64,000 nucleotides of DNA from an uncultured Lentisphaerota bacterium (lineage in GTDB: Bacteria > Verrucomicrobiota > Kiritimatiellia > RFP12 > UBA1067), in the NCBI GenBank assembly GCA_946413265.1, contig CAMKJU010000005.1, positions 1 through 64,000 on the forward strand. The letters run 5' to 3'. Shown here in pieces: positions 1 through 43,422 of this stretch. The position numbers and the translations under genes were made by a program. The notes beneath the pieces were generated by a model. That model was not told where the DNA came from. It searched no databases and worked only from the letters and a program-made list of their open reading frames with translations. Each line of letters starts with the position of its first letter. Positions within the stretch are counted from its first letter, which is position 1.

Positions 1-1
1 C

Positions 2-265
2 GTGATGGACGTGGTGGCGAACGTGGGCGTGTCGCGCAGGTTGCTTGAAAAACGCTTGCGCGAGGCGACCGGGCAGAGTCTGCTCGAGATGATCCAGTCG
101 GTGCGGCTGGAGAGCGTCTGCCGTCTGCTTACCACGACCTCACTGCCGATGTTGGAGGTGGGGGAGCGTTCCGGCTACGATTCCACCTCGAACCTCAGTT
201 GCCTGTTCCGCAAGCGATTCGGCATGACGATGAGCGACTACCGCGCCCAAAACGCGAAACCCTGA
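2..265 (+). CDS. AraC-family transcriptional regulator, C-terminal fragment
   Basis: This is the 3' end of a gene whose start lies outside the window. The roughly 87 residues left form the two helix-turn-helix motifs of an AraC/XylS DNA-binding domain. The first recognition helix is around VSRRLLEKRLREATG. The second half has the typical spacing of a repeated RLxxxxxLL segment, then EVGERSGYDSTSNLSCLFRKRFG and the terminal SDYRAQ, close to the family's F-x-x-x-F-R-K-x-x-G-x-x-P-x-x-Y-R ending. In this lineage such domains often sit behind a LacI-like sugar sensor (compare the complete gene on the minus strand ending at 49001), so the parent may be a XylR-type regulator, but the sensor is not visible. 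The target is unknown. Confidence 0.85.
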   Translation: MMDVVANVGVSRRLLEKRLREATGQSLLEMIQSVRLESVCRLLTTTSLPMLEVGERSGYDSTSNLSCLFRKRFGMTMSDYRAQNAKP

Positions 266-347
266 GCCGCAGAGAAGGTTTCGGGAGTGCCGCGCTTGTC
301 GCGGCCGCAGGGCGGGCGCGCTGTGACCTCCAAGGCATACCCTTTGT

Positions 348-435
348 GCCGTGTAGGGAGATCAAACCCGCCGTGTAGGGAAATCGAATTTGCCGTGTAG
401 GTAAGTCGCTCCCCCCGTGTAGGGAGACCCGTACA
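348..435. repeat. 22-bp tandem repeat, four copies (iteron-like)
   Basis: Units begin at 348, 370, 392 and 414, exactly 22 bases apart. Each starts with SCCGTGTAGGKA; the tails (roughly GATCAAACCC, AATCGAATTT, AGTCGCTCCC, GACCCGTACA) diverge. The period is not a multiple of three, so it is not a coding repeat. Function unknown; the layout resembles iterons or an operator array. Confidence 0.85.
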
Positions 436-633: not shown

Positions 634-680
634 TGAATACTGAGTTGCGCAAAAGCGGATGAAGTCTTGCGTAAAAACGA

Positions 681-709
681 GTGACACGGCAAAGGAGTTT
701 TGGTATACT
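681..709 (+). promoter_or_regulatory. Sigma-70-type promoter with extended -10
   Basis: GTGACA at 681-686, a 17-base spacer, and TGG-TATACT with the -10 at 704-709. The transcript would begin near 716 and run through the poly-G tract into the small genes at 854 and 1002. Confidence 0.65.
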
Positions 710-834
710 ATACATTGCACCCCAGATTGGGGACTTGAAGGTCGCATGAAATGATGCAGAAAACTACAGATAGGACGGCCCTAAAGGCCACTTGTTCGGT
801 GTTTCCATCGAACTGTGGTGAATTTGCAATTTCC

Positions 835-846
835 GGGGGGGGGGGG
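835..846 (+). other. Homopolymeric G12 tract, candidate phase-variation switch
   Basis: Twelve consecutive G residues lie seven bases before the ATG at 854, where a Shine-Dalgarno sequence would be expected. The tract also sits inside a 52-codon frame starting at 751 (SD-less ATG) and ending at 908. Loss of one G would fuse that frame to the one starting at 854. Slipped-strand mispairing at such tracts is a well-known switch in bacterial surface genes; its use here is inference. Confidence 0.5.
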
Positions 847-853
847 ATGCTAT

Positions 854-1000
854 ATGCTAATTTTAGCATTGGCGTTGTCCCTCTCGGCCCTTGCGGCTCC
901 GCCGCATGACGCATCTACGGGAGTCGCGGCCAATGACGGTTTCAACGACGGCATCGACCGCACCGATCCCAACTTCGTCACCGCAAGGGAGGAGGCATGA
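854..1000 (+). CDS. Small protein with signal-peptide-like N-terminus
   Basis: The frame encodes 48 residues beginning MLILALALSLSALAAPP, a hydrophobic stretch with an Ala-rich cleavage-type ending, then a short acidic tail. It has no normal Shine-Dalgarno sequence; the G12 tract occupies that place. A longer version from a GTG at 815 would read through the G tract and put Gly residues ahead of the hydrophobic segment, which looks less natural. The stop at 998-1000 is one base from the next ATG at 1002, so the two may be co-translated. It could be a decayed signal peptide of a lost secreted gene rather than a functional peptide. I recognise no family. Confidence 0.35.
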   Translation: MLILALALSLSALAAPPHDASTGVAANDGFNDGIDRTDPNFVTAREEA

Positions 1001-1473: not shown

Positions 1474-4400
1474 ATGAAAAAGACCATGAAGAATGCAATG
1501 AGTTCATTGACGGCGAAGCTCGCCGCCCTGCTGCTCGCCTTCACGTGCGCGGGCACGGCGTGGGGCGCCACTACGCCGGTGTCGACGCTGGCCGAGCTGA
1601 CCGCCGCGATCACGGCGGCCTCCGCCGGCGACACGATTCAGCTGACGGCGGACATCACCGTCAATAAGGCGGTAGTTGTCGACAAGAGCCTGACGCTCGA
1701 TCTTAGCGGCAAAACGCTGGTACTTAAGTACATGGATGCCAGTCAGGGGTCTTTGACGAATACGGCTCCTCTGACGGTGGTCGGTGGCACGGTCACAAGT
1801 ACGGGGCCGTCGACGGCTGCTGGCGGCACCATCTATGGAATTACTTACGAAAGTGATTTAACGCTTCAAAATGTCTCGATTTCGGCTGTAAGTGCTGTTC
1901 CGAATAGTACCACTGTTAGCCCAGAGGGCAAAGTTTGCGCGGTGTATGGCAAGTCCGGCAATCTTGTGGTGGAAAACTGTACGTTGTCTGCGACGGCGAA
2001 GGCCAAGAACCAGAGCAACCATGCATACGCAGTTTATGTCGAGTCCACAGCTGGAGCGGTGAGTATCAGCGGCAGCAGCCTGACGGTTTCGAATACAACT
2101 GTTTCAAATGCCTCTTACGGGAAGGAATTTGGACTTTTCCTTGCCGCAGATATCGTCCCTTCGATTGCCGACAGCACGATTCAGGGTATAATGATAGCTA
2201 GTACCAACACAAGGGACATTACGCTTAATGCAGGTATTTTTGCGAACAACACGTTGACGGGGTTTACCCATGGCATTGACTATTCGGGGACGGGTTCCTT
2301 GACCGTTGACGGCATCACCGTCAACGCCGGTACTTTCTCCGGTTCCACAGGCATCTACAATCGCGGTACCGGCACGGTTGTCGTGAAAACAGGCTCGACC
2401 GTGGCCAGCACGCAGTCCGATGCAATCTACAACGCTTCCACGGGCAAGATTGTCGTTGACGGCGGTACGATAAGTACCACATATTCGACGATGGCTGGCG
2501 TCAAAAACTATGGTAAGGGTGAAGTCGTTATCAACGGCGGAACGATCAGCGGTGGGTACGGTGTGTACAACAACACCGGTACGACGACGATCAACAACGG
2601 CACGATTTCCGGAACGATGAGTACTGGTGCCGTTTTCAACAACGGTGCAGGTACGGTAAACATTGCGGGCGGTACAATCGAGAATACAGGTACGAGCGCA
2701 AACTGCTCGGCGGTTTACAACAATGGCACGGGCAAGATCAACATTACTGGCGGCTCCATGACCGGATCGAAATACGGCGTGTATAACAATGGCTCCGGTA
2801 CTGTCACCATCGAGGACGGGACGATTGCTGGACAGGCGCAGAGCGGTGTCTACAACAGAGTAGCAGGTAAAGTTGCCGTCACGGAAGGCACGATTACTGG
2901 CAAGACCGACGGCGTTTACAACTATGGCACGGGGTCGATCACGATTGAGGGCGGCGCGATCTCTGGCGAGACGAACGGTATCCACAACTACAACGCCAAA
3001 GGCTCTGTTGCCGTTTCGGGTGGCACCGTCAGCGGAGCAATCAACGACAACAACAAGACCGGCACCGTCACGGTCAGCGGCGGCACGTTTACCACGGACG
3101 TTTCAAGCTACCTCGCCGATGGCAGCACGCAGACCGACAACGGGAACGGTACGTACACGATTGCACCGCCCGCCGCGCAGATTGGCGAGACGAAGTACAA
3201 GACCCTCGCCGAGGCTCTTACCGCAGCGAAAGCCGCCGGCATGACCGAGGTGGAGGTTGTCTTGCTTGACGATGCTCAGTTCTCCACCATCACTTCGCTC
3301 GTCGGCTCGTTCTCCAAGATCACCTTTAAGGGAACGGCGCGCAACCAGACGCTTGACATCAATCTCAATAGTGCATTTGATGTCAGGCCTTCGACAGAAT
3401 TCGTTTTTGATGGTCTGACGGTTTCTCGCCTTGACACATCAAGCGATGCTTGGCTCTACCACTATTTTTCTGCGAATAAGATCACCTACAATGATTGCAA
3501 ACTGGTTGGCGAATTTACGGTGATGCATCAGGATACGGACTTCGTAAACTGCGCATTCACCGTGCCTGAGAGCTACGGCAAGCATTATGCCCTTTGGGTT
3601 TGCAAGTGCGACAACCGCACGGTCAACGTGTCGGGGTGTACTTTTGCCGGCTATGACCGGGCCATCAAGATGTATGGCGACGGTTTCTCCTCGACCATGA
3701 CCCTTAACATTTCCGATAGCCAGTTGGCGATATCGAAGAAGAATAAGACCGTAGTTGAAATTGCCGTCGACAAAGGCAATAAGGGTACGTTCAACCTGGT
3801 GATCAACAATTGCACCAAGACCAACTTCGGAACTTCCGAACATGTGGGCGCGAAGTGGGGTGAGAATCTTGTTTCTGAGTGGTTCAATGCAGAAATCAAA
3901 TCTGAAGTCGTTGCTAATGGCGACACGTTCAATGTCTACGTTGACGGCGAGCGTATCTTTATGCCATGCGCGAAAGTCGGTGAAGCGTCCTACTGCGATC
4001 TTCAGAAGGCCGTCGACGCTGCGGAAGCCGGGGGGACGGTTGAGTTGATCGGCAACGTGACGCTTGTTTCTGACCTCGTCGTCAACAAGACCCTCACGAT
4101 TACAACTGGCGGCTATGCCATCATCGGCAATGTCACGGCATCTGAGAACTATGTGGTCGTCAAGACTGAAACGGGGTATCAAATCGGCATTCCTGTTGCT
4201 AAGGTCGAAAAGGACGGTTCGACAATGCACTATTTCGACCTCCATGAAGCACTTGAGGCGGGCAAGGCGGCCGGTTCGGTCGTCACGCTCCTCGCGGACG
4301 TGGACCTCAACAACGAGCCGTGGACGCCGGTGGGCAAGTACGTCGTTTGGGTGGACGAGCAGGGCAACAAGATTCTCACCAGCCAGGGCAAAGAACAAGC

Positions 4401-7400
4401 CGACCCCGCCTACTACTTCGCGGGTACGTTCGACGGCAACGGAAAGAAGATTTCCAACCTGAAGATCAACAAGCCGACGATGACGTCTGTCGGCCTCATC
4501 GGCTACGGCCACGGCAGCCCGACGGTCAAGAACCTGACGGTCGAAAATGTGGACGTCAAGGGCCGTGCGGCGGTCGGCTCGGTTTTCGGCGACGGCATCA
4601 ACAACGTCCAGATCGACAACGTGACCGTGACGGGCAAGATTGCCATCGAGGGCAACTACAAGGTCGGCGGCATCATCGGCGGCGGCTACTTCTGCGTGAA
4701 GAACAGCCAGGTCGTCGGCGACGGCACCGGTACGATCACCGGTGTGTACCTCGGCGAGAAAGGCGATGTTGTCGGCGGTGAAACCTTCGCCATCGGTTAC
4801 GAGGGAGACAACGTGGGCGGCATCGCCGGATTCGCAGGCGAGGGCAATTCCCTCCGGTTCCAGAACTGCTCCGTGAGCGGCGTGAAGATCGTCGGTACGC
4901 GCAAGGTCGGCGGTGTTGCCGGTTCCCTCTATCAGAGCAACAAGGCCGAGAAAGTCTCCGTGAGCGACATCACAGTCGGCACGAATGCCGATACCGACTA
5001 CGCCACGGCCAACCTTAAGACGATGGGCATCGGCAGTCTCGTCGGCGTATACACGGCTCACGCCGAGAACAATGGCGAGCTTACGGGTTCCGTAAGCGGC
5101 GTCACGACGGTCAACGAGAACAAAATCGACGAGTCCCTTTACACGATTGGTGTGATTACGGGCGGCCTGCGCGGAGACAATACGCTGCCCGTGCATCCCG
5201 CATCCACGCTTGACAGCGACGTGCAACTGACGCTCACGTCCACGGCGGGATTCTCCAACGATTATCTTGTCCCTGTCGCGACGCTCTTCGATGTCGATGG
5301 CACGACGGCGATCCGCAGCTACACGACTCTCGCGGCGGCGGTCGAGGCGGCCACGACTGGCCAGACCGTGAAGCTCTTGACGGACAACGCGGAGGACATC
5401 ACCGTCTCCACGGCGAAGACGTTCACGATCGATGCGGATTCCTTCACCTACTCCGGCAACGTCACGGCGGCAAGCGGCTACGTCCTTTCCGCTACCACTT
5501 CCGGCACGACGACGACCTACGCCGCCGCCGTCGCCATCGCTCGGATTGGCTCGACCGAGTATGGTTCGCTTGACACGTTGCTTGCCGCCATTCCGTCGGA
5601 CGGCACGCCGACTACAATCACGATTCTTGTCGATCTGCCGACGGGGAGCACCTATATCACGCTTCCTCAGGGATACAACGTCACAATCGATTTTAACGGC
5701 CACGTGATTACATCGACGCTCAGCGGGGCCTACGCGCCAATCGAGAACTACGGCACGCTGACGCTTGTCGATACGAGCGCGGGTAAGACGGGCGGCATCG
5801 CCGGTGTCAACCGCTGCGTGAACAACTATGGGACGCTGAATGTCGGCACCGGCACGTTCGATTCCGGCACGAAGACGGCCAGCAACGTTGTTTTCGGCGG
5901 CAACTATACGACGACCAGTCATTCGGGCGGCACGGCAATACGCGGCGCAAACGCTTCGGCCGTCATGAATATTTGGGACTGCAACGTCGACGCCGGTATG
6001 TATGCCGTCTATAACTACGGCACGGCGAACGTATATGGCGGAACGTTCAACGGAACGTCGTGCAGCAAGTGCACCGGCAGCAGCTATGCCTACACGTTCT
6101 CTTCGGCTGGTACGTTGAATTTCTACAATGGCGCAGTCTCTGGCGTACACGGCGCTCTGAGCGTGGTCAATGGCACGGCGTCGATCTACGATGGAACGTT
6201 CACCGTCGTGTCCTGCCAAAGGCTTGTGGGCCATTCAGAGACGCCGAACGCCGGCAACTATTACGCGCTCTACGTGGCGGGCGAGACAGGTGCCGTGAGC
6301 TGTGACGTTCTCGGCGGCACATTCACCTCTCCCGGCGTTTCTGTCGTGCTGAACGGCAACAGCGGCGATGGCGGCCTCAAAGAGCACGCGACACTCGCAA
6401 TCCATGGCGGGACGTTCGTTGCCACAGGCAGCAGCACCACCGTCTTCCAGAATGACAATGTTCTCGGCGACCCCAAGATCTACGCGGGCACATTCACGGC
6501 GGCGACCGCCGAAAAGATTGCCGCGTTCTACGAGTCTGCTACCTCGAAGGGGTATCTTGGCGATGATTACAGGCTCAGTGAATTGGATGCCGCAACCCAC
6601 ACCTACACTGTCGAATCCCGCGGCGTAGCCAAAATCGAGCGCACTGGTGAGGCAACACAGTACTACTCCACTCTTGCGGCGGCCTTTGGTGCTGCGCAGA
6701 CTGACGATACGATCCTGCTTCTGGCGGATGTCGAGCAGACAAGCCCCATAACGCCGCTCAACTCGAAGCGTATTCTTGATTTGAACGGATATGAGATTGA
6801 CGGAAATGGCAACACCTCTATTTTCAATCTCAACAACGGTGGCATTTTGGAGATTGATGACAGTAGGGGCGGTGGCAAGATTTGCAACGCCGTTAAAGTC
6901 ATCCAGATAAATGGGGCATATCAAGACAATCTTACCGTCGGCGGTGAGGTTATTCTCAAGGCAGGAAGCATTGAGGGTTGTTTGAACAGAGAATCATATG
7001 GTATTTACTCCAACAATGGCCACACGAAGGTGGAAATTCAAGGAGGAAGTGTCTATGGTGGTTATATTGCCATTCGTATCGTAAAAGCCGATAAGGTTGG
7101 TGCGGGTTATGTCAAGGTTTCTGGAGGCCAGGTTAAAGGAGGTTTTGACGGGTATGTGCATGCCGCTTCTGGTATTGAGGCGACAGTTCCAATCACCATT
7201 GAGGGTGGTAAGATTGTTGCCGAGTCGAAAAACCAGACTTATGCCGTGAAAAGCAGTACGAAAACCCTTGGCGGCAATGAGTTAATTAAGATCACCGGAG
7301 GGACGCTCTGCTCTTATACGCCGGGCATTGGCGCTTCGCTTTCGATTGACTCCCAGTACACAACGGAGATCTCCGGCGGCTGGTTCTCCGAGAAGGTGAC

Positions 7401-10400
7401 GGCCAGCAGCGCCACTGCGGTTCCGGATGAGTACTGCGCCGAGGACTATCTGCCGTCTGAAGAAACCAAGAATGACTTTGGCGACGGTCTCACCTACCAC
7501 ACGGTCAAACTCGGCGTTGCCAAGATCGGGACGAAGGCGTACGATTCGCTGGCAGAAGCGTTCGCGGCGGCTGAAGATGGCGACACGGTGAAGCTCCTGA
7601 AGGACGTCGAGCTGACGGACCGCCTGTTCGTGAACGCCGGGGCGACGCCTGCCTACGCGGGCAGCAACAACCGCTACGCGACGACGAGCGAGAACAAGGC
7701 TGTCACGCTCGACCTGAACGGAAAGAACATCACGAGCGACAGCAACATCGCGCTCGCGGGCGGCAGCCTGAACGTCACAGGCACGGGCAAGATCTCGACG
7801 ACGAACGACGGCCTCGCGCCGATCGAAGTCCGCGGCACGGGCGACCTGGCGACCAAGCGCACGCTGACAATCGGCTCTGGCGTCACGCTCGAGGGCGGCG
7901 AGTACGGCCTGAACGTGTTCGGCTCGAACGACGCGCAGAAGAACGTGATTGACGTGACCGTTGACGGCACGGTTAACGGGACGCTGTTCGTGCTCGGCAA
8001 CCTCAAGAACGCCGCGAACGAGATCAACATCGTCGTGAACGGCACGGTGGCGGCGCCCGCCGGAGAGGGCGACAATGTCAACGTGGGTATTGCGCTCAAC
8101 GGCAACGCGAACGTGACTGTCAACAACGGTGCGACAGTGAGCGGCGACTCGGGCATCGAGGTGCGCGCGGGCACGCTGACGGTGAACGGCGGCACGATTA
8201 CTGCGAAAGCCGAGACCTACAGCTACAAGGCGAACGGCAGCGGTTCGACGACGAAGGGCGCGGCGATTTCTGTTGCGCAGCACACGACGGTGCTTCCGAC
8301 GGCGGTGACGCTCAACGGCGGCACGCTCGTCGGCACCGAGAAGGTGTACGTGAAGGAGGTCAACGCCGGCATGCCCGACGTTACGGTCCAGGCGACGCAG
8401 GGATACACCGCGACGGCGACGATCCCCGAGGACTTCAAGTGGGTCGAGACGGCGACGGCTGGCGTCTACACGCTGGCTGTGAAGGATTATGTTGCGCAGA
8501 TCGTGCGTAACGATACGGTTGTGTGCAAGTACGAGAGCCTGGCGGATGCCATTGCGCAGGCGCAGGCCGACGATACTATTGCGTTGCTGGCGGATGTGAA
8601 TTCCGACACCAGGTTCAGCATCACCAAGTCGCTTACGATTGACGGGCAGGGTCATACTATAGCGGTCAACAACCACGACAATCGCGTCATCGACATCAGC
8701 GAAACGAGTGATGTCACTTTGACCTTGAAGAATGTCACGATTGACGGCGACAATGTCAAAGTGGACGACGCCTATCCTCGTGGCATTTCCATGTATGGTA
8801 ACACAAATGTTAAACTGGTTCTGGACAATGCCACTGTCTCTGCTGGGCATTATGCCATCAACGTGGCTGGTGCCAACAATGGTGTTCAGATCGATATAAA
8901 GAATTCCTCCGTAGCGTCCGGCTGGGCGGCAATCAATGTTTGGTCGCCTGCTGAGATCAATGTGACCGGCAGTGAACTAAGTGGCAGCAACGACAAGGGC
9001 TTTGAAGCTAATGGCTGGAACAACTTCTCCACTATCGTTCTCAACGAGCAGGGCGATACGAGTGCTGCGGGTTCTGAACTGACTTTCACTAACACGAAGA
9101 TTAAGTCTGAAGTTCAAACAGGAAATTCACAGTGGTTTGTTGACGTTCGCTGCGGCGATGCAACCATTACTTTTGACAATTGTGAATTTGAACAGACCGG
9201 TACACCAGCCGATGATGGCAAGCATCCTGACGCCATGTTCGCAGTCAGGGGTGCTGAAGTCAGCGATGTCACTTTCGATGACTGCACCTTCACTAAGGAC
9301 GGTGTGGAAGTAGATGCAGTAGATGCCCTTGTCCAAAATACACTATTCTACAGCTATCCAGCACTATATTCCGATTATGTAATAGATCAAACGCAGTACG
9401 TTATCGGTACGGACGGCGAAGTTCGGCAAGCTGTTCCCGGTACGGTCGAGCGTGATGAAGACTACAACGTGACAGCGGGCACCTTCTATGACGAAAACGA
9501 TCCTACAGACACTCTTGCCGATGGGTACATTGCGGACAAGAATGCCGACGGAACGTATACCGTCAGGGTGGCTCATTACGTCGCGCAGGTGTTCACGGGA
9601 GAGACGGCCGGTCAGAAGTACGAGTCGCTCGACGAGGCCCTCAAGGCGGCGGCGGACGGCGACACGGTGAAACTGCTCCAGGACATCGAGCTGACGGATC
9701 GCCTGTTCGTGAACGCCGGCACGACGCCGACGCTTGACTCGAAGAACCGCTACGCGACGACGAGCGAAAACAAGAGCATTACGCTCGACCTGAATGGCTT
9801 CGACATCACGAGCGCGAGCAACATCGCTCTGGCGGGCGGCAGCCTCACCATCACGGGTAAGGGCACGATTTCTACGACCGGCTCCGGCCTTGCTCCGATC
9901 GAGGTGCGCGGCACGGGCGACCTGGCGAGCAAGCGCACGCTGACCATTGGCGAGGACGTGACGCTCGACAGCACGAGCCGTTCGTACGGCCTGAACGTGT
10001 TCGGCTCGAACGACGCGCAGAAGAACATCATCGACGTGACGGTCGACGGCACGGTGAACGGCACGGTGTTCGTGCTCGGCAACCTCACGAACGCCGACAA
10101 CGAGATCAACATCGTCGTGAACGGCACGGTGGTCGCGCCCAACAACGCGGCGGCCGACAAGTCCAACGTGGGCATCGCGATCAACGGCAACGCGAACGTG
10201 ACGGTGAACGACGGCGCGGCGGTGAGCGGCGACACGGGCGTCGAGGTGCGCGCGGGCGCGCTGACGGTGAACGGCGGCACGATCACGGGCACTGCGGAAA
10301 CCTACAGCTACAAGGCGAACGGCAGCGGCTCGACGACGAAGGGCGCGGCAGTCGCGGTGGCGCAGCACACCACGCGCCAGCCGATTTCCGTCGAAGTCAA

Positions 10401-13400
10401 GGGCGGCACGCTCGCCGGACCGGCGTCCGTGGCCGTGGTCGATCCGGAGAACGGCGATCCCGCTGGCGTGTCGGTCGCGCTGAAGGGCGGCACCTTCTCG
10501 GGTACGGTCGAGATCGACGAGTCCGCGGCTTCCGTCGGCTCGATCATCCCGGGCGAGGTCGGCGACGGCGCGAACCCGGCCCTGTTCTCGGACGCGGCGT
10601 CCGACGGTGTTGCCGAGGACTACAAGCTCGTGGCCGTCGAGCCCGCCACCGACCCTGTGATGTACCACGTGATTCCGAAGGACTATGTGGCCCAGGTCGG
10701 CGAGGGCGATGGCGCGAAGAAGTACGAGACCCTGGCGGAGGCGGTGAAGGCTGTTCCGACGGACGGCACGGCGACGACGGTGAAGCTCCTGAAGGCCGTG
10801 AGCGGGGAGACGATCGCGGTCAACGGCAGCAGGAACGTCGTCCTGGACCTTGACGGCAAGGAGCTGACGCCCGACTTCCTGTACGTGCTCAACGGCGCGC
10901 TGGAGGCGAGGAACGGCACGATCAAGAACCGCGTGTACGTGTACGGCCTGGACACGGACAACTCCGGCATGTCGAGCACCTTCACGCTCGCGCAGGGCGC
11001 GACGATCACGGCCCAGTACGGCGTGATCCTGAACAACATGACCACGGAGAGCCCGGCCTATGACGCGACGGTGAACGTCGCCGGCACGATCAACGGCAAC
11101 ATCTGGGTGATGGGCAACATCCAGGAGGGCGACAGCGTCATCAACGTGTCCGGCACGGTCGCGGCGAGCGGCGTGGCGATCGCGCTGAACGGCGTCGCCA
11201 CGCTGAACGTGACGGGCGGCACGGTGACGGGCACGACGGGCATCGAGGCCCGCGCGGGCACGCTGAACGTGACGGGCGGCACGATCAAGGAGACGGCGAC
11301 CGGGTTGACGGTCAAGGCGAACGGCAGCGGTACGACGGTGACGGGCGCGGCGGTCGCGATCTCGCAGCACACGACTGAGAAGCCGGTCACGGTGAACATT
11401 TCGGGCGGCACGCTCGACGCGACTGCGGGCGGCGTTGCGCTGTACGAAGTCGACACGGTGGCTTCGGAGACGCCCTCGGCGGGCGTGACGGCCACGGTGA
11501 CGGGCGGCACGTTCTACGGCTCGGTGACGAACGAGAACGGCACGATCACGATTCCGGCCCTGGTGGACGGCAACCCGAACCCGGCGCACTTCAGTGAGCA
11601 GGAGAAGACGCAGGGCGTCCCGGCCGACTACAAACTCGTGCCGGTGGAGGGCACCTCCGACCCGGTGATGTACCAGATCGTCGCGAAGGACTACGTGGTG
11701 AAGGCGGTCGACGGCGAGGGCAACATCCTCGCGCAGTACGAGTCGCTGCAGGAGGCGTTCGACAACGCTCCTGAGGGCAGCACGCTCCAGCCCCTGGACA
11801 ACCTCGTCCTCACGGAGATGGCGATTGTCAAGAAGGGCAGGACGGTCAGCCTCGACCTCGCGGGCAAGTCGATCACGGCGTCCCCGACCACATGGACGGC
11901 GGGCGACTGCGTGCTGTGCGTGAACTACGGCGGCAGCCTGACGGTTTCCGACAGCAGCAATCCGTCCACGGCAGCAATCGACGCGACGACGGGCAATACG
12001 GCTAAGGTCTACGGCGCGGTCAAGGTGACGAACAAGGGCGAGATCCGCAGCGGCGACGAGGTCGCGGCGCTGACCGTGGACGGCGGCACGCTGGTCGGCT
12101 ACTACTATGGCATCGTCGGCAATGGTGGACGTCCCGGCACGGAGATCACTGTCAACGGCGGCGAGGTCAAGGCGACCTGCCCGGGCGATAACCTTGCGAT
12201 CTTCCATCCGCAGTCCGGCACGCTCACGCTGAACGGCGGCAAGCTGACGGGCGCGACGGGCGTCGAGATGCGCGCGGGCGAGCTCGTGGTCCCGGCCGAC
12301 TCGACTGTCGAGGTGACGGCGGACGGCACCTACAGCGCGACGGCCAACGGCAGCGGATCGACCATCGTCGGCTCGGCGCTGGCGCTCTCGCAGCACGTCG
12401 CCAACCCGTCGCTGTCCGCGACGGTTGCGGGCGGCACGTTCCGCGCGACGGGCACGGACGGCAAGGCGTTCGTCGAGGTCGATCTCCAGAACGAGGACGT
12501 GACCGGCATTTCGGCGACGCTCGCCGGCGGCACGTTCTACGGCGTCGTCTCCACGGAGAACGTCGAGACGCTGATCCCGGGCACGTCCACGGCGCTCTTC
12601 AGCGACGCGGCGTCCGACGGTGTTGCCGAGGACTACAAGCTCGTGGCCGTCGAGCCCGCCACCGACCCTGTGATGTACCACGTGATTCCGAAGGACTATG
12701 TGGCCCAGGTCGGCGAGGGCGATGGCGCGAAGAAGTACGAGACCCTGGCGGAGGCGGTGAAGGCTGTTCCGACGGACGGCACGGCGACGACGGTGAAGCT
12801 CCTGAAGGCCGTGAGCGGGGAGACGATCGCGGTCAACGGCAGCAGGAACGTCGTCCTGGACCTTGACGGCAAGGAGCTGACGCCCGACTTCCTGTACGTG
12901 CTCAACGGCGCGCTGGAGGCGAGGAACGGCACGATCAAGAACCGCGTGTACGTGTACGGCCTGGACACGGACAACTCCGGCATGTCGAGCACCTTCACGC
13001 TCGCGCAGGGCGCGACGATCACGGCCCAGTACGGCGTGATCCTGAACAACATGACCACGGAGAGCCCGGCCTATGACGCGACGGTGAACGTCGCCGGCAC
13101 GATCAACGGCAACATCTGGGTGATGGGCAACATCCAGGAGGGCGACAGCGTCATCAACGTGTCCGGCACGGTCGCGGCGAGCGGCGTGGCGATCGCGCTG
13201 AACGGCGTCGCCACGCTGAACGTGACGGGCGGCACGGTGACGGGCACGACGGGCATCGAGGCCCGCGCGGGCACGCTGAACGTGACGGGCGGCACGATCA
13301 AGGAGACGGCGACCGGGTTGACGGTCAAGGCGAACGGCAGCGGTACGACGGTGACGGGCGCGGCGGTCGCGATCTCGCAGCACACGACTGAGAAGCCGGT

Positions 13401-16400
13401 CACGGTGAACATTTCGGGCGGCACGCTCGACGCGACTGCGGGCGGCGTTGCGCTGTACGAAGTCGACACGGTGGCTTCGGAGACGCCCTCGGCGGGCGTG
13501 ACGGCCACGGTGACGGGCGGCACGTTCTACGGCTCGGTGACGAACGAGAACGGCACGATCACGATTCCGGCCCTGGTGGACGGCAACCCGAACCCGGCGC
13601 ACTTCAGTGAGCAGGAGAAGACGCAGGGTGTCCCAGCGGACTACAAGCTGGTGCCGGTGGATGGCACCTCCGACCCGGTGATGTACCAGATTGTCCCGAA
13701 GGACTATGTGGCGCAGGTTGTGCGTGAAGAGGCGGTTGTCGGTAAGTACGAGTCGCTGGCAGAAGCGTTCGCGGCGGCTGAAGATGGCGACACGGTTCAG
13801 CTCATTGCCGATGCCGAGCTGGATGACAGCTTGGACGTTGCAAGCGACGGAGCGGTCATCACGCTCGATCTGAACGGCAAGGAACTGTCCGCTGCGGAAG
13901 GCAAGGTCGCAAACGACAAGTTCACGGCGAACAGCGCGCACGACTACCTCATCGGCGTCAAGTATGGCACGACGCTCCAAATCGTGGACAGCGTCGGCGG
14001 AGGCGCAATCGACGGTTCCAAGCTCATCGTCGCCGTCAAGCTCACCACGAAGGGCGAGACCCCGGCTAATGAAGACGATTCTGCGGCACTCGTCGTGGGC
14101 TCTGAAGATGACGCCGATTTGAACAACTTCACCATCAGCGGTGATTACTATGGCATCAGCGGCAACGGCACGCGCCACCAGACCAATCTCGCGGTCCACG
14201 GTGGTACAATCCAGGCCGTTAACGATTCCGAAGGCACGGGCATCTACCAGCCGCAGGACGGTATTCTATACATTGGAGGCGGCACCATCAAGGGCTTTGA
14301 TTCTGCCGTTGAAGTCCGCGCAGGCGATGCTACCTTCTGGGGCGGCAATTATGTCGTGACCGGTCCCACCACCTACTCCGCCACCAGCAACGGAAACGGC
14401 ACGACGATCAAGGGCGCGGCTATTGCCATTGACCCGCATGCGACTGGCAAGGAACTGTCGGTGACGGTACTTGACGAGGGGCCCTACTCGTTCACCGTCC
14501 CTCAGGGCGGAGTGCGTTTCGCTATCGCCAACGCAGAAAATGTGGATATCGATAGCCTGTTGTCCGTCCAGGTCACCGGCTTGGCCGAAGTCTTTGGGCA
14601 GAGCTTCGAGCTGCCCGAGGGATATGACTGGTACCTCGTCGGCGAAGATGTGTATACCATCAAGCGGACTGTTGCCGAACGCCTGGACGCGAACGGCGGC
14701 CATGTCGCGTACTACGCCACTCTTGAGGACGCGATGGATGCCGTTGAAGACGGCGAAACGGTGAAGCTCCTGAAGGACGTCGAGCTGACGGACCGCCTGT
14801 TCGTGAACGCCGGGGCGACGCCTGCCTACGCGGGCAGCAACAACCGCTACGCGACGACGAGCGAGAACAAGGCTGTCACGCTCGACCTGAACGGAAAGAA
14901 CATCACGAGCGACAGCAACATCGCGCTCGCGGGCGGCAGCCTGAACATCACTGGCACGGGCAAGATCTCGACGACGAACGACGGTCTCGCGCCGATCGAA
15001 GTCCGCGGCACGGGCGACCTGGCGAACAAGCGCACGCTGACAATCGGCTCTGGCGTCACGCTCGAGGGCGCCGAGTACGGCCTGAACGTGTTCGGCTCGA
15101 ACGACGCGCAGAAGAACCTCATCGACGTGACGGTGAACGGCACGGTGAACGGGACGATCTTCGTCCTGGGCAACCTGAAGAACGCCGAGAACGAGATCAA
15201 CATCGTCGTGAACGGCACGGTGACCGCGTCGGCGGGTTCCGCTGAAGACGTGACCGTGGGCATCGCGCTCAACGGCAACGCGAACGTGACGGTGAACGAC
15301 GGTGCGGAAGTGACCGGCGAGACCGGCATCGAGGTCCGCGCGGGCACCCTCACGGTGAACGGCGGCAAGATCACGGGCACGGCGTCCGAGTACAGCTACA
15401 ACCCGAACGGCAGCGGCTGCACGACGAAGGGCGCGGCCGTGGCGGTGGCGCAGCACGGCACGAAGCTCGCGACGAGCGTCACGCTCAACGGCGGCACGTT
15501 CGAGGGCGTCAAGACGATCGGCGTCACGGACGTGAACGGCAACATGGACAACGTGGAGGTGCTGGCAAAGCAGGGCTTCACCGAGAACTCCGCGATTCCA
15601 GACGACTACAAGTGGGTCGAGACGGAGACATCTGGCGTGTACGAACTCGTCCCGAAGGACTACGTGGCACAGATCGGCGACGACGGCGAGAAGTTCGAGA
15701 CGCTCGCCGAGGCGTTCGCGGCGGCGCAGTCCGGCGATACGGTCAAGCTGCTCAAGGACATCGAGCTCACGGACCGCCTGTTCGTGAACGCCGGGGCGAC
15801 GCCTGCCTACGCGGGCAAGAACAACCGCTACGCGACGACGAGCGAGAACAAGGCTGTCACGCTCGACCTGAACGACCACGACATCACGGGTTCGAGCAAC
15901 ATCGCGCTCGCGGGCGGCAGCCTGACCATCACGGGCTCGGGCACGATCTCGACCACGACCTCCGGCCTCGCGCCGATCGAGGTCCGCGGTACGGGCAGCC
16001 TGACGAGCAAGCGCACGCTGACGATCGACACGGGCGTGACGCTCGAGGGCAAGTGCTACGGCGTGAACGTGTTCGGCTCGAACAGCGCTGACAAGAACGT
16101 CATCGACGTGAACGTGAACGGTACGGTGAGGGGCATGGTCTTCGTGCTCGGCAACCTGACGAACAGCGCGAACGAGATCAACATCAACGTGACGGGCACG
16201 GTCGACGCGTCCGCAGCCGTTGGCGAAGAATCCGTCCATACGGCCATCGCGCAGTGCGGCTACTCGACCGTTACGGTCAGCGACGGTGCGGTCGTCAAGG
16301 GCGAGAGCGGCATCGAGACGCGCGCGGGCACCCTGACGGTGAACGGCGGCACGATCACGGCCACGGCGGCGTACAACTACGCGTCCAACGGCAGCGGCAC

Positions 16401-17094
16401 GACCACGAAGGGCGCGGCCGTCGCGGTGGCGCAGTACGGCGCGGACCGCGTCACGAGCGTGACGATCAACAACGGCACGCTGTCGGGCGAGAAGAAGATC
16501 GCCGTCACGGACGTCAACAACGACATGTCCAAGGTCAAGGTGTTCGCGAAGGAAGCCGACACGACTCCGACCGTGATTCCCGAGGGCTACTCGTGGGCTG
16601 AGTCGACGGAGAAGCCCGGCATGTGGACGCTCGTCAAGCAGCTCGCCTCCTTCACGTACCCGATCGAGGGCACGGCGGGCATCCCGGTCGACCTCCAGTG
16701 GCTGGAGGACAACCTTGACGGCGTCAAGCTCCCGATCCTCGAGACGCAGACCGACGACATCATCGCGGCCCTCTCCGAGAAGGGCGAAAACGGCATCCCG
16801 GTGTGGCAGAGCTACGTGCTCGGACTTAATCCCAAGAGTGCCACGTCTCAGCTGCGTCTGGCGGCGACTGCCAAGGACGCGACCACGGTGACGATCACAG
16901 GCATCATCGACACGACGAAGTTCCCGAAGATTGCAAATGTCACGGTGATTTTCCGCCTGGCCTCGCGTAACGCGGACGGCACTTGGTCGAATATCGATGG
17001 CTGCACGGGCGCGGCGTCGCCGTCGTTCGACATGGCGCTGGACGCGGTGGCCGGCAAGACGCTGGCGATCTTCGCCGACATCGTGACGGAGTGA
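1474..17094 (+). CDS. Giant secreted modular beta-helix protein (5,206 residues)
   Basis: The N-terminus is a signal peptide (cleavage near TAWGA, residue 32). Residues about 35-560 are short beta-helix rungs (G-T-V/I-x-I-x-G-G-T-I). From residue about 566 a module recurs: a linker such as DYVAQV, a K/Q-Y-E/D-S/T-L-x-E-A-x-x-A helix, G-D-T-V-K-L-L-x-D-V/I, then more beta-helix rungs. Eight late modules start at about residues 2338, 2701, 3070, 3406, 3741, 4077, 4399 and 4729, roughly 320-370 residues apart; several carry ELTDRLFV. GLUG-like Gly-rich repeats lie near 980-1240. The last 150 residues differ (WQSYVLGL) and I see no PEP-CTERM, LPxTG or beta-barrel anchor, so the retention mechanism is unclear. 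The start follows AAAGGA. Likely role: adhesin or cell-surface layer protein (inference). Two modules are recent exact duplicates, and base composition varies along the gene. Confidence 0.85.
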   Translation: MKKTMKNAMSSLTAKLAALLLAFTCAGTAWGATTPVSTLAELTAAITAASAGDTIQLTADITVNKAVVVDKSLTLDLSGKTLVLKYMDASQGSLTNTAPLTVVGGTVTSTGPSTAAGGTIYGITYESDLTLQNVSISAVSAVPNSTTVSPEGKVCAVYGKSGNLVVENCTLSATAKAKNQSNHAYAVYVESTAGAVSISGSSLTVSNTTVSNASYGKEFGLFLAADIVPSIADSTIQGIMIASTNTRDITLNAGIFANNTLTGFTHGIDYSGTGSLTVDGITVNAGTFSGSTGIYNRGTGTVVVKTGSTVASTQSDAIYNASTGKIVVDGGTISTTYSTMAGVKNYGKGEVVINGGTISGGYGVYNNTGTTTINNGTISGTMSTGAVFNNGAGTVNIAGGTIENTGTSANCSAVYNNGTGKINITGGSMTGSKYGVYNNGSGTVTIEDGTIAGQAQSGVYNRVAGKVAVTEGTITGKTDGVYNYGTGSITIEGGAISGETNGIHNYNAKGSVAVSGGTVSGAINDNNKTGTVTVSGGTFTTDVSSYLADGSTQTDNGNGTYTIAPPAAQIGETKYKTLAEALTAAKAAGMTEVEVVLLDDAQFSTITSLVGSFSKITFKGTARNQTLDINLNSAFDVRPSTEFVFDGLTVSRLDTSSDAWLYHYFSANKITYNDCKLVGEFTVMHQDTDFVNCAFTVPESYGKHYALWVCKCDNRTVNVSGCTFAGYDRAIKMYGDGFSSTMTLNISDSQLAISKKNKTVVEIAVDKGNKGTFNLVINNCTKTNFGTSEHVGAKWGENLVSEWFNAEIKSEVVANGDTFNVYVDGERIFMPCAKVGEASYCDLQKAVDAAEAGGTVELIGNVTLVSDLVVNKTLTITTGGYAIIGNVTASENYVVVKTETGYQIGIPVAKVEKDGSTMHYFDLHEALEAGKAAGSVVTLLADVDLNNEPWTPVGKYVVWVDEQGNKILTSQGKEQADPAYYFAGTFDGNGKKISNLKINKPTMTSVGLIGYGHGSPTVKNLTVENVDVKGRAAVGSVFGDGINNVQIDNVTVTGKIAIEGNYKVGGIIGGGYFCVKNSQVVGDGTGTITGVYLGEKGDVVGGETFAIGYEGDNVGGIAGFAGEGNSLRFQNCSVSGVKIVGTRKVGGVAGSLYQSNKAEKVSVSDITVGTNADTDYATANLKTMGIGSLVGVYTAHAENNGELTGSVSGVTTVNENKIDESLYTIGVITGGLRGDNTLPVHPASTLDSDVQLTLTSTAGFSNDYLVPVATLFDVDGTTAIRSYTTLAAAVEAATTGQTVKLLTDNAEDITVSTAKTFTIDADSFTYSGNVTAASGYVLSATTSGTTTTYAAAVAIARIGSTEYGSLDTLLAAIPSDGTPTTITILVDLPTGSTYITLPQGYNVTIDFNGHVITSTLSGAYAPIENYGTLTLVDTSAGKTGGIAGVNRCVNNYGTLNVGTGTFDSGTKTASNVVFGGNYTTTSHSGGTAIRGANASAVMNIWDCNVDAGMYAVYNYGTANVYGGTFNGTSCSKCTGSSYAYTFSSAGTLNFYNGAVSGVHGALSVVNGTASIYDGTFTVVSCQRLVGHSETPNAGNYYALYVAGETGAVSCDVLGGTFTSPGVSVVLNGNSGDGGLKEHATLAIHGGTFVATGSSTTVFQNDNVLGDPKIYAGTFTAATAEKIAAFYESATSKGYLGDDYRLSELDAATHTYTVESRGVAKIERTGEATQYYSTLAAAFGAAQTDDTILLLADVEQTSPITPLNSKRILDLNGYEIDGNGNTSIFNLNNGGILEIDDSRGGGKICNAVKVIQINGAYQDNLTVGGEVILKAGSIEGCLNRESYGIYSNNGHTKVEIQGGSVYGGYIAIRIVKADKVGAGYVKVSGGQVKGGFDGYVHAASGIEATVPITIEGGKIVAESKNQTYAVKSSTKTLGGNELIKITGGTLCSYTPGIGASLSIDSQYTTEISGGWFSEKVTASSATAVPDEYCAEDYLPSEETKNDFGDGLTYHTVKLGVAKIGTKAYDSLAEAFAAAEDGDTVKLLKDVELTDRLFVNAGATPAYAGSNNRYATTSENKAVTLDLNGKNITSDSNIALAGGSLNVTGTGKISTTNDGLAPIEVRGTGDLATKRTLTIGSGVTLEGGEYGLNVFGSNDAQKNVIDVTVDGTVNGTLFVLGNLKNAANEINIVVNGTVAAPAGEGDNVNVGIALNGNANVTVNNGATVSGDSGIEVRAGTLTVNGGTITAKAETYSYKANGSGSTTKGAAISVAQHTTVLPTAVTLNGGTLVGTEKVYVKEVNAGMPDVTVQATQGYTATATIPEDFKWVETATAGVYTLAVKDYVAQIVRNDTVVCKYESLADAIAQAQADDTIALLADVNSDTRFSITKSLTIDGQGHTIAVNNHDNRVIDISETSDVTLTLKNVTIDGDNVKVDDAYPRGISMYGNTNVKLVLDNATVSAGHYAINVAGANNGVQIDIKNSSVASGWAAINVWSPAEINVTGSELSGSNDKGFEANGWNNFSTIVLNEQGDTSAAGSELTFTNTKIKSEVQTGNSQWFVDVRCGDATITFDNCEFEQTGTPADDGKHPDAMFAVRGAEVSDVTFDDCTFTKDGVEVDAVDALVQNTLFYSYPALYSDYVIDQTQYVIGTDGEVRQAVPGTVERDEDYNVTAGTFYDENDPTDTLADGYIADKNADGTYTVRVAHYVAQVFTGETAGQKYESLDEALKAAADGDTVKLLQDIELTDRLFVNAGTTPTLDSKNRYATTSENKSITLDLNGFDITSASNIALAGGSLTITGKGTISTTGSGLAPIEVRGTGDLASKRTLTIGEDVTLDSTSRSYGLNVFGSNDAQKNIIDVTVDGTVNGTVFVLGNLTNADNEINIVVNGTVVAPNNAAADKSNVGIAINGNANVTVNDGAAVSGDTGVEVRAGALTVNGGTITGTAETYSYKANGSGSTTKGAAVAVAQHTTRQPISVEVKGGTLAGPASVAVVDPENGDPAGVSVALKGGTFSGTVEIDESAASVGSIIPGEVGDGANPALFSDAASDGVAEDYKLVAVEPATDPVMYHVIPKDYVAQVGEGDGAKKYETLAEAVKAVPTDGTATTVKLLKAVSGETIAVNGSRNVVLDLDGKELTPDFLYVLNGALEARNGTIKNRVYVYGLDTDNSGMSSTFTLAQGATITAQYGVILNNMTTESPAYDATVNVAGTINGNIWVMGNIQEGDSVINVSGTVAASGVAIALNGVATLNVTGGTVTGTTGIEARAGTLNVTGGTIKETATGLTVKANGSGTTVTGAAVAISQHTTEKPVTVNISGGTLDATAGGVALYEVDTVASETPSAGVTATVTGGTFYGSVTNENGTITIPALVDGNPNPAHFSEQEKTQGVPADYKLVPVEGTSDPVMYQIVAKDYVVKAVDGEGNILAQYESLQEAFDNAPEGSTLQPLDNLVLTEMAIVKKGRTVSLDLAGKSITASPTTWTAGDCVLCVNYGGSLTVSDSSNPSTAAIDATTGNTAKVYGAVKVTNKGEIRSGDEVAALTVDGGTLVGYYYGIVGNGGRPGTEITVNGGEVKATCPGDNLAIFHPQSGTLTLNGGKLTGATGVEMRAGELVVPADSTVEVTADGTYSATANGSGSTIVGSALALSQHVANPSLSATVAGGTFRATGTDGKAFVEVDLQNEDVTGISATLAGGTFYGVVSTENVETLIPGTSTALFSDAASDGVAEDYKLVAVEPATDPVMYHVIPKDYVAQVGEGDGAKKYETLAEAVKAVPTDGTATTVKLLKAVSGETIAVNGSRNVVLDLDGKELTPDFLYVLNGALEARNGTIKNRVYVYGLDTDNSGMSSTFTLAQGATITAQYGVILNNMTTESPAYDATVNVAGTINGNIWVMGNIQEGDSVINVSGTVAASGVAIALNGVATLNVTGGTVTGTTGIEARAGTLNVTGGTIKETATGLTVKANGSGTTVTGAAVAISQHTTEKPVTVNISGGTLDATAGGVALYEVDTVASETPSAGVTATVTGGTFYGSVTNENGTITIPALVDGNPNPAHFSEQEKTQGVPADYKLVPVDGTSDPVMYQIVPKDYVAQVVREEAVVGKYESLAEAFAAAEDGDTVQLIADAELDDSLDVASDGAVITLDLNGKELSAAEGKVANDKFTANSAHDYLIGVKYGTTLQIVDSVGGGAIDGSKLIVAVKLTTKGETPANEDDSAALVVGSEDDADLNNFTISGDYYGISGNGTRHQTNLAVHGGTIQAVNDSEGTGIYQPQDGILYIGGGTIKGFDSAVEVRAGDATFWGGNYVVTGPTTYSATSNGNGTTIKGAAIAIDPHATGKELSVTVLDEGPYSFTVPQGGVRFAIANAENVDIDSLLSVQVTGLAEVFGQSFELPEGYDWYLVGEDVYTIKRTVAERLDANGGHVAYYATLEDAMDAVEDGETVKLLKDVELTDRLFVNAGATPAYAGSNNRYATTSENKAVTLDLNGKNITSDSNIALAGGSLNITGTGKISTTNDGLAPIEVRGTGDLANKRTLTIGSGVTLEGAEYGLNVFGSNDAQKNLIDVTVNGTVNGTIFVLGNLKNAENEINIVVNGTVTASAGSAEDVTVGIALNGNANVTVNDGAEVTGETGIEVRAGTLTVNGGKITGTASEYSYNPNGSGCTTKGAAVAVAQHGTKLATSVTLNGGTFEGVKTIGVTDVNGNMDNVEVLAKQGFTENSAIPDDYKWVETETSGVYELVPKDYVAQIGDDGEKFETLAEAFAAAQSGDTVKLLKDIELTDRLFVNAGATPAYAGKNNRYATTSENKAVTLDLNDHDITGSSNIALAGGSLTITGSGTISTTTSGLAPIEVRGTGSLTSKRTLTIDTGVTLEGKCYGVNVFGSNSADKNVIDVNVNGTVRGMVFVLGNLTNSANEININVTGTVDASAAVGEESVHTAIAQCGYSTVTVSDGAVVKGESGIETRAGTLTVNGGTITATAAYNYASNGSGTTTKGAAVAVAQYGADRVTSVTINNGTLSGEKKIAVTDVNNDMSKVKVFAKEADTTPTVIPEGYSWAESTEKPGMWTLVKQLASFTYPIEGTAGIPVDLQWLEDNLDGVKLPILETQTDDIIAALSEKGENGIPVWQSYVLGLNPKSATSQLRLAATAKDATTVTITGIIDTTKFPKIANVTVIFRLASRNADGTWSNIDGCTGAASPSFDMALDAVAGKTLAIFADIVTE
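10591..13628 (+). repeat. Exact 1,025-bp direct repeat inside the giant gene
   Basis: Bases 10591-11615 recur at 12604-13628 with no difference that I can find, offset 2,013 bases. They encode residues about 3040-3381 and 3711-4052. A different module of about 1 kb lies between them. The total lack of even synonymous change indicates a very recent duplication or gene conversion. A shorter exact match of 189 bp links 7585-7773 and 14758-14946. Confidence 0.9.
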
Positions 17095-17205: not shown

Positions 17206-17246
17206 ATGAGGACTGAAAGACAGAAAGACTTTAAGGAGAAATGAAA

Positions 17247-17993
17247 ATGAAGAAGATTCTGATGATTCTCGCGGCGGCCGCGACAAGCGCGGCCCTCCCG
17301 TTGCTGGCCGGGCAGGACAACCTGCTGGCGACGTTCTCGACGAAGGGGCCGGACCGCTACGCGGACGGCACGCTCGTGAAGGACGGCGAAAGCTACGCGC
17401 TCGTGTGGACGAAGGCCGGCGCGGCGTTCGCGGGCATCACCGTGACCGGCGAGGCCGTGGGCGACCAGAACCTGAACCGCGTGCTGTGCATTGCGCCGCT
17501 CGCGCAGGGCGGTCGCTGCCCCGACGTGGTCGTTGAGGTGAACAAGGTCGTGGCCGACCTCTACGCGGGCGCGGGCACGTTCTCGCTCCACCTGCTCGAC
17601 ACGCGCAAGGCCGACGGCACGCCCGGCGGCGTGGAAGCCGGCGTGAACGGCTTCGGCGCGGCGCAGGCGTTCACGCTCTCCGCCTCCCAGCAGCTGCAGT
17701 CCGGCGTTGCCACGAACGCGGCGCTCGCGGCCACGGCCACGGTCCTCCCGGATTCCATCCCGCAGCCGAAGATCAAGTCGATCGAGGTGAAGGACGGCAT
17801 CGTGCGCCTCACGGTGGCGCGCACGTCGAAGCTCGTGCGCTACGGCGTGTCCTCCGGCGACACTCCGGCGAACCTGAAGTCCGACGCCGACTTCGCCCCG
17901 CAGGACGGCAACGATGCGGGCGACATCGTGATCACGGCCCCGGCGAAGGGCACGAGCGGCTTCTTCTCGGTCGGCCGCGCGCCGCTGAAGTGA
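17247..17993 (+). CDS. Secreted protein of unknown function (about 248 residues)
   Basis: The protein has a clear signal peptide (MKKILMILAAAATSAALPLLAG). An ATG at 17241 is also in frame, but the GGAG at 17235-17238 is only two bases from it and eight from 17247, so I prefer 17247. After the leader come alternating hydrophobic strands (YALVWTKAG, VVVEVNKVVADLYAG, FSLHLLDTRKADGT) that suggest a beta-sandwich. The C-terminus reads GFFSVGRAPLK, an ending like that of the fibronectin-type result-table proteins of this lineage (F-F-x-V-x-R). No catalytic motif is visible. It sits between the giant beta-helix gene and another secreted gene, all with the same leader, and may be an accessory of that surface system. 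Codon use is GC-rich and uniform. Confidence 0.75.
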   Translation: MKKILMILAAAATSAALPLLAGQDNLLATFSTKGPDRYADGTLVKDGESYALVWTKAGAAFAGITVTGEAVGDQNLNRVLCIAPLAQGGRCPDVVVEVNKVVADLYAGAGTFSLHLLDTRKADGTPGGVEAGVNGFGAAQAFTLSASQQLQSGVATNAALAATATVLPDSIPQPKIKSIEVKDGIVRLTVARTSKLVRYGVSSGDTPANLKSDADFAPQDGNDAGDIVITAPAKGTSGFFSVGRAPLK

Positions 17994-43335: not shown

Positions 43336-43372
43336 CGCCTGCGGGAAATGTCCCGCAGGCGTCCGTTTTTTT
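43336..43372 (+). terminator. Rho-independent terminator
   Basis: A perfect 11-base stem (43336-43346 and 43351-43361, CGCCTGCGGGA with its complement) closes on a four-base loop, AATG. A T-rich stretch ending in seven T residues follows. Confidence 0.9.
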
Positions 43373-43374
43373 GC

Positions 43375-43380
43375 TATAAT
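43375..43380 (+). promoter_or_regulatory. Extended -10 box before parE
   Basis: TGC-TATAAT directly follows the terminator T-run; parE starts 43 bases later. A -35 element is not clear. Confidence 0.55.
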
Positions 43381-43422
43381 ACTCGCTCATTTCAAACCAA
43401 AGATTTCAGGATCCATCTGTTC

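What the first reader, a model, noticed from the sequence alone, without database searches (positions are those of the whole stretch)
10591..13628. Perfect 1,025-bp duplication in a 15.6-kb surface gene
The two copies have no difference that I can find, including synonymous positions, although the other modules of the gene are diverged. This indicates very recent duplication or ongoing gene conversion, and such long identical repeats would permit RecA-dependent deletion or amplification of a two-module unit (2,013 bases, in frame). Length variation of the protein between cells is therefore plausible. If the sequence comes from short-read assembly, copy number could be mis-assembled.
Basis: seen in the sequence. 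Interest (0 to 1): 0.6.

Follow-up and report, generated by a model that had tools for sequence, protein, structure and literature searches.

The report
Copied beta-helix module in giant protein
A gut bacterium's giant secreted protein carries one of its building blocks twice in apparently identical form, which fits ordinary recombination between similar blocks, but the draft assembly cannot be trusted to show how many copies exist or that they are truly identical.

Summary
In detail: 10591-11615 and 12604-13628 are identical over exactly 1,025 bases (offset 2,013, in frame) inside a 5,206-aa ORF. It is the longest exact repeat in all DNA examined; the next is 189 bp, in the same gene. The interpretation needs correcting. 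The copied unit is one beta-helix module (C) plus 84 bp of the preceding linker, not a two-module unit: the modules after the two copies (D, E) are only 33% identical. Both tract edges lie in conserved inter-module linkers. Just past the right edge the copies still align but differ at 8 of 78 bases, 7 of them third codon positions, so the edge is a real recombination boundary. The most likely cause is gene conversion or a double crossover between linkers in a module array that recombines repeatedly. At the same syntenic locus in related species the gene has 3 to 16 modules. However, contig ends show exact 55-bp overlaps, the mark of a k=55 short-read assembly. Such an assembly fixes the order C-D-C but neither the number of C-D units nor strict identity, and variation between cells is untested. 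It resembles variable-length 'Periscope' proteins but fails their adjacent-repeat criterion. Solid but mostly ordinary.

The parts
1474..17094 (+). 5,206-aa secreted multi-module protein; signal-peptide-like N terminus (by eye), 16 module headers, C-terminal domain
7492..8481 (+). module A1; 189-bp exact match with A3 at 7585-7773
8482..9570 (+). module B (diverged)
9571..10674 (+). module A2: A-type up to about 10350, then a C/D-type tail (chimera)
10591..11615 (+). copy 1 of the exact 1,025-bp tract: last 84 bp of the A2 linker plus module C1 without its last 73 bp
10675..11688 (+). module C1, predicted right-handed beta-helix
11689..12687 (+). module D
12604..13628 (+). copy 2 of the exact 1,025-bp tract: last 84 bp of the D linker plus most of module C2
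12688..13698 (+). module C2
13699..14664 (+). module E, not a copy of D (33% aa)
14665..15663 (+). module A3
15664..16638 (+). module A4
16639..17091 (+). C-terminal domain; matched in 50 of 114 genomes of the family, up to 24 matches in one genome (G041)
17241..17993 (+). conserved neighbour gene (250 aa; 80-94% aa in five same-genus genomes) that marks the syntenic locus

Best explanation
The two copies are module C of a giant, probably surface-exposed array of right-handed beta-helix modules. Homologous recombination between conserved in-register linkers copied a whole module (linker piece plus helix) from one site of the array to the other by gene conversion or a double crossover, keeping the frame and leaving D and E unlike each other. 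Similar patchy exchanges of other ages are seen between A1 and A3 and in the chimeric module A2. SHOWN: the tract, its edges in linkers, the D/E divergence, the mosaics, and different module numbers at the same locus in related species. INFERRED: the recombination mechanism, surface location, and that the two copies are exactly identical in the living cell. UNKNOWN: direction of copying, number of C-D units, variation between cells, ligand.
For: Exact tract with sharp edges: 14 of 30 bases differ just left, 8 of 78 just right, 7 of those 8 at third positions. Edges fall in linkers: on the left in the tail shared by A2 and D, on the right in the C tail; in the model the C-terminal linker (about residues 290-338) is low-confidence while the helix core is mostly above 90. 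C1 and C2 tails (including 12 bp of the tract) are 85% identical, against 52-70% for the other pairs of six tails, apart from the tract-shared A2/D pair at 100%, so C2 was probably already C-like before the last homogenisation. D/E: 33% aa, different codon at 51% of shared residues. A1/A3: 189 bp exact, neighbouring windows 89-98%, later windows 68-83%. A2 is A-type up to about 10350 and C/D-like in its tail. At one syntenic locus, header counts are 16 (own), at least 7 (G007), 3 (G010), 4 (G012), 13 (G005), although a GyrB-like protein is 94-99% identical among them (the G005 value rests on two fragments).
Against: One assembly only; no reads and no second genome of the species. The 55-bp contig-end overlaps imply a short-read graph that cannot fix copy number and may have removed isolated differences between the copies. 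No long relative of module C above 48% aa was found outside the two copies (short matches of under 80 residues reach 58%), so donor and direction are unknown. A double exchange is inferred; no intermediate was seen.
Confidence: 0.58

Rival explanations
1. The identity, or the copy number, is partly made by the assembler: near-identical C copies were collapsed to one consensus, or a simple C-D loop was walked once although the molecule has more units, or strains were merged.
For: Contig ends share exactly 55 bp at three places (C5 start with C4, C28 start with its own interior, both ends of C255); 10 of 104 ends had any match of 25 bp or more, the other lengths being 25-33 bp. No 16S rRNA was found, and the 4.70 Mb lie in 275 contigs. 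A k=55 graph cannot pass a true 1,025-bp repeat without very long inserts, a loop rule or collapsed variants; PMC8021871 (passages read) states that metaSPAdes collapses strain differences by bulge projection and uses pre-collapse paths to resolve repeats. In a related genome (G007) the frame breaks right after each copy of a 99-bp exact repeat.
Against: Differences spaced under 55 bp survive between A1 and A3, and the sharp edge with third-position changes cannot come from collapse alone. In C5 the repeat pattern is nested (189-R-R-189), so if every unique stretch is used once the order C-D-C is forced (from the runs; by reasoning). The frame stays open through both copies.
Confidence: 0.3
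2. Tandem duplication of the two-module unit C-D (2,013 bp), after which the second D turned into, or was replaced by, E.
For: The spacing is in frame and equals C plus D.
Against: D and E share 33% aa and 49% DNA identity, like other unrelated module pairs, while C1/C2 show none of this divergence; the tract stops inside the C tail.
Confidence: 0.07
3. Identity kept by strong selection on the sequence rather than by recent copying.
For: None found.
Against: 0 differences over about 341 third positions, against 7 third-position changes in the adjacent 78 bp; same-residue codons differ at 17-31% between A, C and D modules other than C1/C2.
Confidence: 0.02

Closest known systems
Periscope Proteins (SasG, Rib, Sgo_0707, CdrA; PMC8201768, passages read)
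   Same: Surface-protein gene with long, highly similar in-frame domain repeats that would permit intragenic recombination and length change.
   Different: Periscope repeats are tandem with 80% identity or more, and their number variation was seen in long-read genomes; here two identical modules flank an unrelated one and variation within the species is unknown.
Right-handed beta-helix surface proteins (pertactin, PfbA, L. reuteri SRRP; matches)
   Same: Predicted fold of module C (Z 18.5-20.8 to these).
   Different: About 16 modules in one chain; no Pfam family reached its cut-off in the giant protein.
Gene-conversion cassette systems such as vls of Borrelia (PMC2632889, listing and abstract start only)
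   Same: Segmental transfer between related stretches of a surface-protein gene.
   Different: No donor cassettes outside the gene were found in the held genome.

Membership tests
Periscope Proteins | tandem repeats over 50 residues with at least 80% identity, side by side | tested here: not met
   C copies are 99% identical but separated by D; adjacent modules among the last nine are at most 66% aa (A3-A4)
Periscope Proteins | repeat number varies between strains in long-read genomes | not testable with these tools
   one short-read-like assembly of the species; only different species compared
Periscope Proteins | surface-anchored, with an N-terminal ligand domain | tested here: inconclusive
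   signal-peptide-like start by eye; no anchor or ligand family found
Right-handed parallel beta-helix fold | coiled parallel beta-strands over the module | tested here: met
   model pLDDT 85, pTM 0.87; VIA Z up to 20.8 to beta-helix proteins; Foldseek matches weak, best E 0.02
Cassette gene-conversion systems (vls/pilE type) | silent donor copies elsewhere in the genome | tested here: not met
   own-genome matches to C and A3 lie only in this gene; caveat: 92.8% complete and some contigs withheld
PEP-CTERM sorted proteins | C-terminal PEP-CTERM motif | tested here: not met
   no hit for the giant protein; neighbour 20213-20830 matches

The most novel reading that the evidence does not exclude
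A locus in gut Kiritimatiellia works as a module-shuffling generator: conserved linkers let RecA-dependent exchange swap, copy and delete whole beta-helix modules in frame, so that cells of one population differ in length and ligand repertoire; a conserved leader with an 11- to 15-G tract may add on/off switching.
Probability: 0.15. Interest if true: 0.65.

Novelty: new member of a known kind. Interest (0 to 1): 0.33.

Why it matters
If real in the cells, it adds an uncultured gut lineage to the bacteria that remodel giant surface proteins by intragenic recombination, with linkers as exchange points and one syntenic locus where module number can be followed. It also warns that perfect repeats in short-read metagenome assemblies say little about age or copy number.

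Tried and rejected
Two-module tandem duplication: rejected on D/E divergence. Silent donor cassettes: none in the held genome. Close relatives by the two-module protein in genome contigs: none; the module alignment found 25 loci, 23 of them only 29-44% identical. Pfam and NCBIfam gave no family above its cut-off for the modules; no solved-structure match by sequence. 16S rRNA, tRNA and Rfam searches gave nothing useful. The head of C9 gave only dispersed repeats, no 55-bp partner. Horizontal transfer of A4 was considered because it is 95% identical in G007, but a GyrB-like protein is 97% there, so it is not unusual. In the VIA list, families other than those named were not assessed; absence from that list proves nothing. 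Paper searches on Kiritimatiellia, surface-protein repeats and giant proteins (listings only) showed nothing on this gene. A taxonomy look-up by the RUG572 record's organism name found nothing. A second structure job (C-terminal domain) was left undone.

Full report
WHAT IS THERE. The window is the first 64,000 bases of contig C5 (87,379 bp) of a 4.70-Mb genome in 275 contigs, 92.8% complete. ORF 1474-17094 encodes 5,206 aa. Two stretches, 10591-11615 and 12604-13628, are identical over exactly 1,025 bp. Next come 189 bp (A1/A3, same gene) and runs of 55 bp or less in the window. Over 35 stretches (613,143 bases; this genome and relatives) and over 82 stretches of the own genome (415,625 bases, 18 of the 82 wholly N) nothing else reaches 190 bp.

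THE ORGANISM. Genome G007, of the same genus, has a contig of the same length (15,974 bp) as ONRL01000132.1, 'uncultured Lentisphaerae bacterium isolate RUG572', which the module alignment query also found. PMC11672655 (passage read) names an uncultured genus RUG572 in class Kiritimatiellia; that the window belongs to that genus is inferred from this. The 913 cow-rumen genomes of PMC5830445 (passages read) are Illumina assemblies made with MEGAHIT; that RUG572 is one of them is recalled. The window genome's own source is not known.

ANATOMY. A header profile finds 16 modules in the gene. The last nine are A1, B, A2, C1, D, C2, E, A3, A4, each about 320-370 aa and joined by linkers around a 'KDYVAQ'-like motif. 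Module C is predicted as a right-handed parallel beta-helix (pLDDT 85, pTM 0.87); its best structural matches are pertactin, polysaccharide lyases and epimerases, the adhesin PfbA and an L. reuteri SRRP, although Foldseek alone was weak (best E 0.02). Surface exposure is inferred from the signal-peptide-like start and the fold.

WHAT WAS COPIED. The tract is the last 84 bp of the preceding linker plus module C without its last 73 bp. The modules after the two copies, D and E, share 33% aa and use different codons at 51% of shared residues, against 17-31% among A, C and D modules other than C1/C2. A single two-module duplication therefore does not explain the tract. Just left of it 14 of 30 bases differ. 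Just right, 8 of 78 differ, 7 at third positions, so the copies continue to align but with ordinary synonymous divergence: the edge is a recombination boundary. C1 and C2 tails are 85% identical (12 bp of the tract included), against 66% and 70% to the A2/D tail, so C2 was probably C-like before the last homogenisation. This favours gene conversion between existing C modules, or a double crossover between linkers, over a fresh tandem duplication. With 0 of 1,025 differences, the upper 95% bound on divergence is about 0.3% per site, if the assembly is right.

OTHER EXCHANGES IN THE ARRAY. A1 and A3 share 189 bp exactly, then show five single differences between 7774 and 7898, then fall to 68-83% in the later windows. 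A2 is A-type up to about 10350 and then carries a C/D-type tail. These look like exchanges of different ages.

THE SAME LOCUS IN RELATIVES. The neighbour 17241-17993 is 94, 84, 82, 82 and 80% identical in G007, G010, G012, G002 and G005, and next to it lies a giant or modular gene in four of these; in G002 the gene is cut by the contig end. Header counts are 16 (own), at least 7 in pieces (G007), 3 (G010), 4 (G012) and 13 (G005). A GyrB-like protein is 97-99% identical in G007, G010 and G012 and 94-97% in two fragments of G005. Module number and content thus change much faster than this protein; this is between species, not between cells. Module C has no long relative above 48% aa outside the two copies (23 of 161 genomes of the order, own included, have any match; short matches of under 80 residues reach 50-58%).

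WHY THE ASSEMBLY MATTERS. Of 104 contig ends tested, 4 ends at three places show an exact overlap of 55 bp: C5 start with C4, C28 start with its own interior, and the two ends of C255. Six other ends matched only 25-33 bp and 94 had no match of 25 bp or more. A fixed overlap of 55 is what a de Bruijn graph with k=55 leaves; that 55 is the last default k of metaSPAdes is recalled. With such data a true 1,025-bp repeat can be passed only with very long inserts, a loop rule, or paths taken before variants were collapsed; PMC8021871 (passages read) describes the last for metaSPAdes. Because the repeats in C5 are nested, the order C-D-C is forced if each unique stretch is used once (from, by reasoning), but the number of C-D units is not, and isolated differences between the copies could have been erased. 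In G007 the reading frame breaks right after each copy of its 99-bp exact repeat (offset 841, not a multiple of 3), either misassembly or real damage.

VERDICT. The tract is real in the sequence, the copied unit is one module, and its edges in linkers point to recombination within the array. Exact identity, copy number and variation between cells stay open. The behaviour resembles Periscope Proteins (PMC8201768, passages read), but their defining side-by-side high-identity repeats are not met. Interest is moderate to low.

Noticed in passing
window 646-860: A leader region upstream of the giant gene is conserved in 3 of 16 same-genus genomes (own, G005 90%, G007 83%), once per genome and upstream of the giant gene in each. 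It holds hairpin-like stretches (by eye) and a G tract of 12 (own), 15 (G005) and 11 (G007) bases: possible phase variation. No Rfam match near its gathering score.
   Followed up: partly
window 282-309 and 348-425: Short dispersed repeats with dozens of partial matches across the genome (56 rows with window 1-400, 44 rows with the head of C9), several near contig ends.
   Followed up: no
L259 (G000 C255, 3,241 bp): Both ends share exactly 55 bp, so it looks circular, but it encodes chromosomal-looking proteins (a UDP-GlcNAc 2-epimerase-like ORF, by eye): probably a graph loop, not a plasmid.
   Followed up: partly
L064 5867-5965 and 6708-6806: G007's version of the gene carries a 99-bp exact repeat with a frame break right after each copy.
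   Followed up: partly
window 858-1000 and 1213-1394: Short secretory-looking ORFs just upstream of the giant gene, perhaps remnants of older genes; read by eye.
   Followed up: no
window 43348-45267: GyrB/ParE-like protein of 639 aa scoring far below all NCBIfam cut-offs (428 against 740 bits for the best model), yet 94-99% conserved in the four same-genus genomes tested.
   Followed up: no
L044 5042-5140 and 6280-6378 (C5 69042 and 70280): A 99-bp exact direct repeat, offset 1,238, elsewhere on the same contig.
   Followed up: no
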